Source: Clostridia bacterium (lineage in GTDB: Bacteria; Bacillota; Clostridia; Oscillospirales; Acutalibacteraceae). From it: a stretch of 64,000 bases of DNA. The notes below the pieces were generated by a model. It was not told the DNA's origin. It saw only the letters and a list, made by a program, of their open reading frames with translations, and made no database searches. The stretch lies in assembly GCA_017549105.1 (NCBI GenBank), contig JAFYVN010000006.1, forward strand, positions 1 to 64,000, read 5' to 3'. A program made the translations under genes and the position numbers. This document shows, piece by piece, positions 6,575 through 8,170 of the stretch (position 1 is the first letter of the stretch; every line of letters begins with the position of its first letter).

Positions 6575-6606
6575 TTTTAAAAAAGACGGCAGATTGCTCT
6601 GCCGTC
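6575..6606 (-). terminator. Intrinsic terminator of the HTH/HipA-like operon
   Basis: The stem GACGGCAGA/TCTGCCGTC (6585-6593 and 6598-6606) has a 4-nt loop and is followed on the minus strand by TTTTTT. It lies 15 nt after the kinase stop codon. The core hairpin is the same as the one at 2613-2630. Confidence 0.8.
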
Positions 6607-6621
6607 AAAAATCCTATTATC

Positions 6622-7440
6622 TCAATTTGTTGCTACAAGATATCTGAATTTATTTTTTCTCGCAAGGAGAACGTTTTTTACACGGTTGCGGATTGCTTCA
6701 TCATAGTATTCCTTGCATTCTTCAACAGAATTTATAATATCGTTTTCCGTAAACCCGATTGTAAGCTGAATGCCGTAGAGTTCTTCTGCAGAATCCATCT
6801 GAAGGTCGAAATCTGCATCAAACGGTTTTGCTTTTACTTTTGAAATACAATCATAAATATCCGCATCAATCAGATAGTCGTTTGTATCGGATAAAAGTGA
6901 AAGTCCGAAATCAAAATATGGACAAAAACTGAATTCTTCCGTATCATCATTTCTGATGAATGCGATGTTATTTGTGTGTCTGTCCTCATTGAGGAAAAAC
7001 GCATCGAGTTCATGCATAACCGTCAGATAAGCACCAACGTTTTCAAGATTGGTGTGTTCTTCGATGAAATCAACGGTGAACTTTATTTTGTCTTTCACTT
7101 CGGGATAGTCAAGAAGAGCCTTTGCCAGAGACTGACCTGTATATGCTCTGAAAAGCTTTTCGAGAGTATAAATTGTTTCGTTATCCTTCTTGAAATTCTC
7201 GGAGTAACAGCCGACAAGTTTTTTGCCTTCGTATTCAATGTACGTTGGCTTGTATATTACAAAATTCTGAATATTCGTTTTTGCAAGAAGTTTTGAAATA
7301 ACAATTTCACTCAGACCTTCATATCCCATATGGTCTGCTTTATACCATAAGCCGTCTGCAAGCCATTTAGGCTGATTCCCTTTTGAAGATGAATCCGTAA
7401 TCATCTTCACGGGTTTAGTATTGATTACTTTGTTGTTCAT
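6622..7440 (-). CDS. Small HipA-like protein kinase (toxin-like), 272 residues
   Basis: The kinase fold of the HipA/CtkA group is supported by WYKAD (candidate ATP lysine K34) with EGLSE close after it. Further on are the catalytic loop NEDRHTNN at residues 151-158 (D153, N158) and FDFG at 176-179 as the metal-binding motif. At 272 residues it lacks the N-terminal subdomain of full HipA (about 440 residues), as CtkA-type kinases do. It probably phosphorylates a protein target on Ser/Thr. It starts 3 nt after the stop of the HTH gene, so the two are cotranscribed and probably translationally coupled, in the order regulator then kinase as in toxin-antitoxin modules. Family membership is seen from motifs; toxicity and target are inferred. 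Confidence is good for a HipA-like kinase, low for a specific role. Confidence 0.75.
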   Translation of the reverse strand: MNNKVINTKPVKMITDSSSKGNQPKWLADGLWYKADHMGYEGLSEIVISKLLAKTNIQNFVIYKPTYIEYEGKKLVGCYSENFKKDNETIYTLEKLFRAYTGQSLAKALLDYPEVKDKIKFTVDFIEEHTNLENVGAYLTVMHELDAFFLNEDRHTNNIAFIRNDDTEEFSFCPYFDFGLSLLSDTNDYLIDADIYDCISKVKAKPFDADFDLQMDSAEELYGIQLTIGFTENDIINSVEECKEYYDEAIRNRVKNVLLARKNKFRYLVATN

Positions 7441-7443
7441 AAA

Positions 7444-8004
7444 TCAACACCTGCTTTCATAAACAAAGTTGATATATTGGTTATCCTCTGCCATTCTGCC
7501 CTTGGTAGCCTCAACAATCTGAAGCGGGTCAAAGTGGTCAATGCCGAGATAATTGAGGATATCTTTTTTGTTGCCACGCTCTTCAGGGAAGCATCTTTCT
7601 CGCAGGAAATACTGAAAATCTTCCCACGTCGGATTTTCGATAACACCGAATGCACGGCGGAGAATATCGTTTGTGCGATTAATGATTGAAATTTTTTCGT
7701 TGAGGAAATCAACGTAGATTTCCGTGCAAACTTTCTGACGGAACATATAGTTCATTCGCATTGTGTAATTACCTTTTGGAAATGCGTTAAGATATTTTGA
7801 GATGGTCTGACGGCTGACACCAAAGTGCTCTGCAATTTTCTGAGTGGTTATTCCCTGCTGCTGCATCTCAATTATTTTCTGAATGTCGGTATCGTTCAAG
7901 GCTTTCTTCCGACCTATTTTTTGCTTGCCTGCAATTTTGCGAAGCTCTGCAACATTGTCTGTTCCAAAAAGTTCAATGCAAAGCTTGCGGTAATCCGTTG
8001 CCAT
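7444..8004 (-). CDS. HTH DNA-binding protein with GRMAED-motif C-terminal domain; partner of HipA-like kinase
   Basis: Residues 31-72 (GRKKALNDTDIQKIIEMQQQ onwards through SRQTISKYL) form a resolvase/invertase-type helix-turn-helix, not the Xre type of classical HipB. Residues 84-186 are a separate domain ending in the block LGIDHFDPLQIVEATKGRMA with EDNQYI (residues 153-178). I recognise this as a recurrent C-terminal pattern (YDPxxI...TxGRMxED) of small Clostridial proteins encoded next to HipA-like kinases; it has no function I can name. The ATG has a GAGGTGA ribosome site. A palindrome lies between the promoter and the start, so the protein probably represses its own operon. It may also neutralise the kinase. 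It could instead be a positive regulator; the sequence does not decide. Confidence 0.7.
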   Translation of the reverse strand: MATDYRKLCIELFGTDNVAELRKIAGKQKIGRKKALNDTDIQKIIEMQQQGITTQKIAEHFGVSRQTISKYLNAFPKGNYTMRMNYMFRQKVCTEIYVDFLNEKISIINRTNDILRRAFGVIENPTWEDFQYFLRERCFPEERGNKKDILNYLGIDHFDPLQIVEATKGRMAEDNQYINFVYESRC

Positions 8005-8022
8005 AATCTCACCTCACAATAT

Positions 8023-8048
8023 AGTGTAAACAATTATTTCTTTACACT
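8023..8048. promoter_or_regulatory. Perfect inverted-repeat operator of the HTH/kinase operon
   Basis: AGTGTAAA (8023-8030) and TTTACACT (8041-8048) are perfect 8-bp arms separated by 10 bp. The palindrome covers the expected transcription start just downstream of the -10 box. The position fits autorepression by the HTH protein. Confidence 0.65.
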
Positions 8049-8049
8049 T

Positions 8050-8078
8050 ATTATATTATGAAGCAAACAAATTGTCAA
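8050..8078 (-). promoter_or_regulatory. Sigma-A promoter of the HTH/HipA-like operon
   Basis: On the minus strand TTGACA (8073-8078), a 17-bp spacer and TATAAT (8050-8055): a perfect consensus promoter. Confidence 0.85.
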
Positions 8079-8170
8079 TATACAGATTTGTCAGCTCTTT
8101 TGCAAGTAAGATAATAAGTAAGAACTTCTGAATAAATCAAGAGCTATACAGCTAATCAAATCAGCTGATA

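What the first reader, a model, noticed from the sequence alone, without database searches (positions are those of the whole stretch)
6575..8080. Self-contained HTH plus HipA-like kinase module with perfect operator: candidate new toxin-antitoxin type
Seen: a consensus promoter, a perfect 8-bp inverted repeat (AGTGTAAA-N10-TTTACACT) over the start site, an HTH gene, a 3-nt gap, a 272-residue HipA/CtkA-like kinase with NEDRHTNN and FDFG, and a terminator. The regulator is not HipB: its HTH is of invertase type and its C-terminal domain carries the LGIDHFDP...ATKGRMAED block. From memory, small Clostridial proteins with this block sit next to HipA-like kinases, but I know of no characterised member. 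Inference: an autoregulated kinase module in which the GRMAED domain may restrain or position the kinase.
Basis: partly seen in the sequence, partly recalled or inferred. Interest (0 to 1): 0.75.

Follow-up and report, generated by a model that had tools for sequence, protein, structure and literature searches.

The report
Split HipA-type kinase toxin-antitoxin module
Two neighbouring genes in a gut bacterium look like a self-regulated toxin-antitoxin pair in which a growth-arrest kinase is held in check by a small lid domain (a relative of the piece found at the front of HipA kinases) that has been joined to an interchangeable DNA-binding part; it is an uncharacterised variant of a known kind, not a new type.

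Summary
In detail: consensus promoter, palindrome over the start site, 186-aa HTH gene, 3-nt gap, 272-aa kinase, terminator. The pairing is real: all 46 kinase relatives found have the partner just upstream, 37 overlapping. Searched from the partner side in 291 genomes, 31 of 34 places lie in or beside a HipA-like kinase. The "GRMAED" domain is not a new invention but probably a divergent HipA N-terminal (HipS-like) domain: it recurs in the same chain as other HipA-like kinases and resembles the HipS-like half of HipN (hipIN, PADLOC PDC-M03). A direct match to canonical HipA N-domains failed. The DNA-binding half varies: resolvase-type HTH_7 here; XRE-type, weakly MazE/AbrB-like, or none elsewhere; operators differ with it. 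In the HTH_7 group two palindrome classes track two recognition-helix classes (14 and 19 loci; 5 fit neither). Best reading: a two-gene HipBST-like system with HipB and HipS roles fused. Toxicity, neutralisation, target and DNA binding are untested; structure prediction was off. Nearest published layouts are hipRG (same order, partner called Stl-like) and hipMP (resolvase-like partner, opposite order); overlap with either could not be excluded. New variant of a known kind.

The parts
8050..8078 (-). consensus sigma-A type promoter TTGACA-17-TATAAT
   Evidence: 12/12 match; an exact TTGACA picked in 45 of 52 upstream regions
8023..8048 (.). operator-like palindrome AGTGTAAA-N10-TTTACACT just downstream of the -10
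   Evidence: read directly; 0 of 100 dinucleotide shuffles as good in the 45 bp from the -10; only exact copy in the held assembly; class I operator in 14 loci, all with recognition helix VSRQT
8009..8015 (-). ribosome-binding site GAGGTGA of the HTH gene
   Evidence: read directly
7444..8004 (-). partner gene, 186 aa: DNA-binding half plus HipS-like (GRMAED) half; proposed fused HipB/HipS antitoxin-autorepressor
7783..7914 (-). HTH_7 (resolvase-type) DNA-binding domain, residues 31-74
   Evidence: PF02796 E 1.4e-12
7471..7752 (-). GRMAED / HipS-like domain, residues about 85-178
   Evidence: hhalign to N-terminal domain of single-chain HipA-like kinases E 4.8e-16 and to HipN N-domains E 4.7e-7; 0 of 200 column shuffles reach either score; not significant against canonical HipA N-domains
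6622..7440 (-). short HipA/HipT-like Ser/Thr kinase, 272 aa, no N-terminal lid of its own; proposed toxin
7363..7392 (-). Gly-rich loop SSSKGNQPKW (residues 17-26) with conserved Ser19 (40 of 41)
6967..6993 (-). catalytic loop LNEDRHTNN (residues 150-158); D153, R154, H155, N158 in 41 of 41
6904..6915 (-). Mg-binding FDFG motif (residues 176-179); D177 and G179 in 41 of 41
6585..6606 (-). intrinsic terminator-like hairpin after the kinase
   Evidence: 9-bp stem with T run

Best explanation
A two-gene split-HipA toxin-antitoxin module. The 272-aa protein is a HipT-like Ser/Thr kinase that lacks the N-terminal lid of HipA. The 186-aa protein carries that lid as a HipS-like (GRMAED) domain, fused to a resolvase-type HTH, so one protein does the work of HipS (holding the kinase) and HipB (binding the operator). 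Proposed working: the HipS-like domain docks on the kinase near the Gly-rich loop and blocks ATP binding; the HTH, probably as a dimer, binds the palindrome over the start site and represses the operon; when the partner is lost or a trigger frees the kinase, it phosphorylates a target (by analogy an aminoacyl-tRNA synthetase) and stops growth. Shown here by sequence: gene layout, constant pairing, domain relationships, variation of the DNA-binding half with a matching change of operator, conserved kinase motifs. Inferred: neutralisation, repression, toxicity, target and trigger.
For: Pairing: 46 of 46 kinase loci have the partner upstream on the same strand, spacing -38 to +39 nt, 37 overlapping. 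Partner-first search: 34 places in 28 of 291 genomes; 29 have a kinase-profile hit within 1.2 kb on the same strand, two more lie in ORFs with sub-threshold HipA_C matches. Domain: hits include N-terminal domains of single-chain HipA-like proteins; two of these run HTH_3, GRMAED-like domain, kinase; hhalign 98.6%, E 4.8e-16, colinear over both genes E 1.6e-22. Link to HipS: PADLOC PDC-M03B is matched by 29 of 44 GRMAED domains at E up to 1, best 1.4e-6; the PDC-M03B-like protein L137 is Couple_hipA (2e-7, above cut-off) plus HIRAN, and three more HipN proteins match Couple_hipA weakly (0.003-0.008); hhalign to 5 HipN N-domains E 4.7e-7, 0 of 200 shuffles as high. DNA-binding half: HTH_7; XRE-type in E. 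eligens (HTH_3 2.2e-8); MazE/AbrB-like in L007 and L011 (0.0075, 0.0046); none in L009, L065 and stand-alone forms. Operators: class I 14 of 14 with VSRQT, class II 19 of 19 with [TA][ST]RQ. HipS blocking HipT is published (PMC10627512, PMC9325769: passages).
Against: Direct profile comparison of the GRMAED domain with six canonical HipA N-domains is not significant (with the wider set 3 of 200 shuffles score as high), so the HipS link is transitive, and HipN against canonical HipA is itself weak (15.7%). Of six HipN proteins scanned, two (L138, L156) show no Couple_hipA match. The window's own domain matches PDC-M03B only at E 0.035. MazE matches are below cut-off and L008 has none. In the single-chain relatives the domain sits in cis, where it could be a structural part of the enzyme. 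Five of 38 HTH_7-type loci fit neither operator class, one of them (L062) with VSRQT. HipA_C is below cut-off for the kinase. No toxicity, binding or kinase data exist.
Confidence: 0.62

Rival explanations
1. The partner's GRMAED domain is an obligate structural or activating subunit of the kinase, and the pair is a regulatory kinase with its own repressor, not a toxin with an antitoxin.
For: The same domain sits in cis at the N-terminus of single-chain HipA-like proteins, as N-subdomain-1 does in HipA, where HipB and not this domain is the antitoxin (PMC8262856, text read).
Against: Patchy distribution (close copies in 6 of 45 genus genomes; E below 1e-40 in 11 of 99 relatives), different flanks in some close relatives, autorepressor-like layout and the HipS precedent favour a TA module.
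Confidence: 0.2
2. It is an anti-phage (abortive infection) module: phage infection frees or activates the kinase. Not exclusive with the best explanation.
For: Related to PADLOC phage-defence candidate PDC-M03; one copy in a 99-kb viral contig beside genes that look, by eye, like lysis genes and a serine recombinase; four records of the phage collection cover 80% or more of the kinase, three were opened (marked UNVERIFIED) and all three have the partner domain; a few flanking ORFs match defence models.
Against: In the window the neighbouring ORFs do not look like defence genes (by eye); flank matches are scattered and no control set was run; viral-collection scans confirmed 0 and 1 relatives.
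Confidence: 0.3
3. It belongs to an organisation already named by Gerdes and co-workers: hipRG (HipR with HTH, then short kinase HipG) or hipMP (short kinase HipM, HipP resembling gamma-delta resolvase) with reversed order.
For: hipRG is written with an HTH partner before a short lid-less kinase; HipP is described as resolvase-like and HTH_7 is the resolvase HTH (PMC8262856).
Against: HipG is said to lack a conserved Ser/Thr beside the Gly-rich loop; here Ser19 is in 40 of 41. HipR is said to be Stl-like; no chain named Stl is among the 14 matches of the partner profile in the PDB. HipP is said to be downstream; here the partner is upstream in 46 of 46. A downstream partner with DUF2442 and HTH_17 (L111) may be the real hipMP; kinases of that layout fall outside this clade. 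HipG and HipM sequences are only in a supplement that could not be opened.
Confidence: 0.3
4. The HTH gene is a remnant of a serine recombinase and sits beside the kinase by chance.
For: HTH_7 match; weak similarity to the Hin recombinase HTH (E 0.51).
Against: Constant pairing with mostly overlapping reading frames; C-terminal domain better conserved (0.585 mean pairwise identity) than the HTH (0.453) in 38 sequences.
Confidence: 0.02

Closest known systems
HipBST (E. coli O127, Legionella; HipB, HipS, HipT)
   Same: short kinase without N-terminal lid; lid-like domain encoded by the upstream gene; DNA-binding autoregulator in the operon
   Different: two genes, not three; DNA-binding and HipS-like parts are one protein; HTH is resolvase-type; HipS-like domain too divergent for Pfam Couple_hipA
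hipRG (HipR with HTH, HipG short kinase; PMC8262856)
   Same: HTH-containing partner first, short lid-less kinase second
   Different: HipR is described as Stl-like and HipG as lacking the Ser/Thr beside the Gly-rich loop; here Ser19 is in 40 of 41; sequences not compared
hipMP (HipM kinase, HipP resolvase-like partner; PMC8262856)
   Same: partner with a resolvase-like feature; [quoted passage not shown]
   Different: published order is kinase first; sequences not compared
hipIN (HipI kinase, HipN = HipS-like + HIRAN), apparently PADLOC PDC-M03
   Same: short kinase plus partner with HipS-like domain; kinase matches PDC-M03A, GRMAED domains weakly match PDC-M03B
   Different: hipIN has the partner downstream with HIRAN; here it is upstream with an HTH; the four HipI kinases fall outside the clade
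hipBA (canonical; the same genome has one at contig C4, L132)
   Same: antitoxin first, kinase second, HipA-type catalytic motifs
   Different: HipA carries its lid in cis; HipB of L132 is HTH_3/HTH_31 and has no lid domain
CtkA (PDB 3akj)
   Same: nearest solved kinase by sequence
   Different: known (recalled, and abstracts) as a pro-inflammatory H. pylori kinase; no partner compared here

Membership tests
HipA-type kinase superfamily | Gly-rich loop with adjacent Ser/Thr, catalytic DRHxxN, Mg-binding DFG-like motif | tested here: met
   G21, Q23, K25, K34, D153, R154, H155, N158, D177 in 41 of 41; Ser19 in 40 of 41; CtkA E 7.3e-7
HipA-type kinase superfamily | Pfam HipA_C above curated cut-off | tested here: not met
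   13.7 bits against 30.5
HipBST | kinase lacks N-subdomain-1 | tested here: met
   Gly-rich loop begins at about residue 17
HipBST | separate HipS gene and separate Cro-like HipB gene (three genes) | tested here: not met
   HTH_7 and GRMAED domain are one 186-aa protein
HipBST | HipS-like domain encoded just upstream of the kinase | tested here: inconclusive
   transitive: to HipN N-domain E 4.7e-7, 0 of 200 shuffles; direct to canonical HipA N-domain not significant; no Pfam family for the window domain
HipBST | HipS neutralises HipT by blocking its ATP site | not testable with these tools
   needs growth and kinase assays; structure prediction switched off
hipIN / PDC-M03 | partner downstream of kinase with HIRAN domain | tested here: not met
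   partner upstream in 46 of 46; residues 80-186 match no Pfam family at E up to 1
hipRG | kinase without conserved Ser/Thr beside the Gly-rich loop | tested here: not met
   Ser19 in 40 of 41, Thr in 1; feature from PMC8262856
hipRG | partner HipR Stl-like | tested here: inconclusive
   no chain named Stl among 14 PDB matches of the partner profile; sequence search only
hipMP | kinase first, resolvase-like partner downstream | tested here: not met
   order reversed; order of hipMP from PMC8262856
hipMP | kinase groups with HipM sequences | not tested
   Table S1 of that paper could not be opened (no supplement look-ups allowed)
type II toxin-antitoxin | small bicistronic operon, antitoxin gene first, coupled genes | tested here: met
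type II toxin-antitoxin | autoregulation by the antitoxin on an operator in the promoter | tested here: inconclusive
   recurrent palindrome that differs with the DNA-binding domain; no binding assay
type II toxin-antitoxin | toxin arrests growth and antitoxin protein relieves it | not testable with these tools
   wet-lab only
serine recombinase / resolvase | resolvase catalytic domain PF00239 | tested here: not met
   not among the best 25 of 44 Pfam families shown for the protein; residues 80-186 match no Pfam family

The most novel reading that the evidence does not exclude
A large, unnamed family of bipartite 'plug-in' HipBST systems in Clostridia and Bacilli, in which a HipS-like lid is the constant antitoxin core and the DNA-binding module (HTH_7, AbrB/MazE-like, XRE, or none) is exchanged together with its operator, including a move of the operator from downstream of the -10 to between -35 and -10; the exchange retunes how the same kinase is triggered, perhaps for anti-phage defence, and the kinase hits a target other than GltX or TrpS.
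Probability: 0.25. Interest if true: 0.65.

Novelty: new variant of a known kind. Interest (0 to 1): 0.5.

Why it matters
It gives a likely identity to a domain without a Pfam family and to a kinase that NCBIfam does not name and that is annotated 'hypothetical protein' in E. eligens. It offers a clean test of what a HipS-like lid does: natural relatives have the same lid fused to different DNA-binding domains, standing alone, or in cis with a kinase. That makes it possible to ask separately which part neutralises and which part represses. It also ties the PADLOC candidate PDC-M03 to the published hipIN organisation.

Tried and rejected
Rejected: 'new TA type' (the partner's core domain looks HipS-like); recombinase remnant; chance adjacency. 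Tried without result: structure prediction of the two proteins as one chain (tool switched off), so no fold search was made; profile match of the GRMAED domain to the PDB (best E 0.93, BzdO), to Pfam (44 members, none convincing), to PHROGs and to canonical HipA N-domains; a first alignment of joined and separate chains that misplaced most kinase N-termini, replaced; a search for 'PDC-M03' in papers (0 hits). Paper searches for described members; the rows shown (capped) did not name this pair, and the library is partial. The flanking-gene scan took 99 of the 145 flanking ORFs selected, has no control, and is not used as evidence of enrichment. Operator classes were defined after looking and follow two clades, so they are not independent events; one search used the 44 partners of alignment A2, near-duplicates left out. 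In one search near-duplicates were kept, and the promoter pick was wrong for some loci (L008, L011). The HipN set A10 has 5 members; L138 and L150 were left out.
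Full report
WHAT IS THERE. On the minus strand of 6585-8078 the sequence holds a perfect TTGACA-17-TATAAT promoter, a palindrome AGTGTAAA-N10-TTTACACT one base after the -10, a ribosome-binding site, a 186-aa ORF, a TTT spacer, a 272-aa ORF and a terminator-like hairpin. The first protein has a resolvase-type HTH_7 at residues 31-74 (E 1.4e-12); its residues 80-186 match no Pfam family at E up to 1. 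The second has only a sub-threshold HipA_C match and no NCBIfam match. Its nearest solved relative is CtkA.

THE PAIR IS CONSTANT. A scan of one-genome-per-species contigs with the kinase gave 46 loci, three of them (L059, L067, L070) cut by contig ends inside the kinase. All 46 have a homologue of the 186-aa protein upstream on the same strand; spacing runs from -38 to +39 nt, 37 of 46 overlap, most often by 4 (18 loci) or 14 nt (10 loci), with start codons chosen by script. These loci are not independent: L025-L029 are 88-94% identical to the window's kinase. Searched the other way, with the C-terminal (GRMAED) domain in 291 genomes of the class, 34 places in 28 genomes matched. Twenty-nine have a kinase-profile hit within 1.2 kb on the same strand, 19 with the domain first and 10 with the kinase first. 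Two more are in ORFs with sub-threshold HipA_C (L081 E 8.5e-4, L095 E 7.7e-5). Three have none: G289, where the frame is broken, G165, and a second place in G192 whose surroundings were not fetched. Among the ten strongest (E below 1e-18) nine have the kinase and the tenth is G289.

WHAT THE GRMAED DOMAIN IS. Nine of the weaker hits that I read out are N-terminal parts of single-chain proteins of 369-495 aa. All nine have a HipA_C match, E 4.5e-9 to 0.0085, two of them above cut-off. Two (L093, L100) run HTH_3, GRMAED-like domain, kinase in one chain, the same order as the two genes of the window. Profile comparison of 44 GRMAED domains with these nine N-terminal domains gives 98.6%, E 4.8e-16; the joined pair and the single chains align colinearly over 212 columns, E 1.6e-22. 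PADLOC's phage-defence candidate PDC-M03 is related to both proteins: part A to the kinase (3.5e-8) and part B to the GRMAED domain, in 29 of 44 members at E up to 1 (best 1.4e-6; the window's own domain only 0.035). Of six proteins of the PDC-M03B/HipN kind scanned in Pfam, all have HIRAN (one, L156, below cut-off); one (L137) has Couple_hipA, the HipA N-terminal domain, above cut-off (2e-7), three have it weakly (0.003-0.008) and two not at all. They thus fit HipN of the published hipIN modules. The GRMAED domain matches five HipN N-domains at E 4.7e-7 (0 of 200 column shuffles as high). Comparison with six canonical HipA N-domains is not significant, and with a wider 22-member GRMAED set 3 of 200 shuffles score as high. 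HipN against canonical HipA N-domains is weak too (15.7%, E 0.0017); no shuffle of 200 reached its score, but narrowly (22.0 against a maximum of 19.8). So membership of the HipS-like group rests on a chain of links and on position, not on one direct match. E-values of these comparisons are for a single pair.

THE KINASE. In 41 sequences the residues expected for HipA-type catalysis are invariant, and a Ser sits next to the Gly-rich loop in 40. The protein starts near its Gly-rich loop, without the HipA lid. In a tree of 44 kinases, 14 of them from the 41 of alignment A1, the HTH_7, AbrB-type, E. eligens, Bacilli and S. salivarius members fall together (local support 0.85), apart from HipI, canonical HipA, the single chains and the L110 type (kinase followed by a partner with a HipS-like start; in L111 also DUF2442 and HTH_17). 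Other deep support values range from 0.2 to 1.0.

THE DNA-BINDING HALF VARIES, AND THE OPERATOR WITH IT. Of the 44 partners aligned, 38 are of the HTH_7 kind. Four (L007, L008, L010, L011) have an AbrB/MazE-like start; Pfam support is weak (MazE_antitoxin 0.0075 for L007 and 0.0046 for L011, below cut-off, none for L008; L010 not scanned). E. eligens ATCC 27750 has an XRE-type HTH (HTH_3 2.2e-8). L065 and L009 lack a DNA-binding half. In three Bacilli plasmids a stand-alone domain of about 130 aa follows the kinase, and a fourth, L166, has the same layout. S. salivarius has a stand-alone 115-aa domain before the kinase. In the HTH_7 group a palindrome sits directly after the -10: of 52 upstream regions tested, all types and near-duplicates included, 24 have a repeat that at most 5% of dinucleotide shuffles match. 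Two classes appear: AGTGTAAA...TTTACAC in 14 loci, all with recognition helix VSRQT, and a TGTAATTAAATTAA-like class in 19, all with [TA][ST]RQ; five further HTH_7 loci fit neither, one of which (L062) has VSRQT. In the four AbrB-type loci a different palindrome (ATTCGGTCCGAAT or TATTGGTTACCAATA) lies between -35 and -10, and L009, which lacks that domain, also lacks the palindrome. The window's operator is the only exact copy in the held, incomplete assembly.

MOBILITY. Six of 45 genomes of the genus drawn, the own one included, have a close copy (E below 1e-160). L029 shares with the window essentially only 8172-6638 plus short repeats, with other genes around; L028 shares 8084-6638 and has a different downstream flank (its upstream side ends at the contig end); L026 shares the upstream transporter, and L025 and L027 share some downstream sequence. 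So the module is found in more than one setting. One copy lies in a 99-kb viral contig beside genes that look, by eye, like an amidase, a holin and a serine recombinase. Flanking ORFs of relatives (99 of 145 selected) include scattered defence-model matches but no control was run.

HOW IT MOST LIKELY WORKS. By analogy with HipBST, where HipS binds HipT at the Gly-rich loop and blocks ATP binding (PMC10627512 and PMC9325769: passages seen), the GRMAED domain would restrain the kinase and the HTH would repress the operon. HipS of E. coli uses Trp65; a section title of PMC10653801 says the Legionella HipS does not (outline and abstract seen). The GRMAED domain has one invariant Trp (W127, 44 of 44), a candidate to test, not a shown equivalent. 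Target and trigger are unknown.

RELATION TO WHAT IS KNOWN. PMC8262856 (parts 1-4 of 7 of the text and passages) lists ten Hip organisations. Its text describes no partner that joins an HTH to a HipS-like domain. Two of its layouts are near: hipRG, an HTH partner named first and a short kinase second, but with a Stl-like partner and a kinase lacking the Ser/Thr beside the Gly-rich loop; and hipMP, with a resolvase-like partner placed downstream. Its sequence table could not be opened, so overlap with either cannot be excluded. I therefore call this a new variant of a known kind.

Noticed in passing
window 8171/8172; L025, L026, L027, L029: Close relatives carry about 612 bp next to the module that the window lacks: two small genes, one resembling an alpha/beta small acid-soluble spore protein (name from recall) and one of 85 aa of unknown kind.
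   Followed up: partly
G000 contig C4 (L132), about 1577-2631: The window's genome has a canonical hipBA (Couple_hipA E 6.4e-20), and the only spore-protein-like match in the held, incomplete assembly lies next to it; the same gene family lies near the split-HipA module in L025-L027, L029, L030, L032, L038, L050 and L053. It may mark a hotspot for such modules.
   Followed up: partly
L065 1-2435: A relative with a stand-alone lid domain lies next to ORFs that look like McrB/McrC restriction genes (by eye; one McrBC match among the 99 flank ORFs).
   Followed up: no
L137, L138, L153-L156: PADLOC candidate PDC-M03 appears to be the published hipIN organisation: HipA-like kinase, then HipS-like + HIRAN protein.
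   Followed up: yes
L110, L111, L116: A further layout: short HipA-like kinase followed by a protein with a HipS-like start; in L111 it also has DUF2442 and a C-terminal HTH_17; possibly the real hipMP.
   Followed up: partly
L060, L061, L064 promoters: In this subgroup the palindrome seems to overlap the -35 box instead of following the -10.
   Followed up: no
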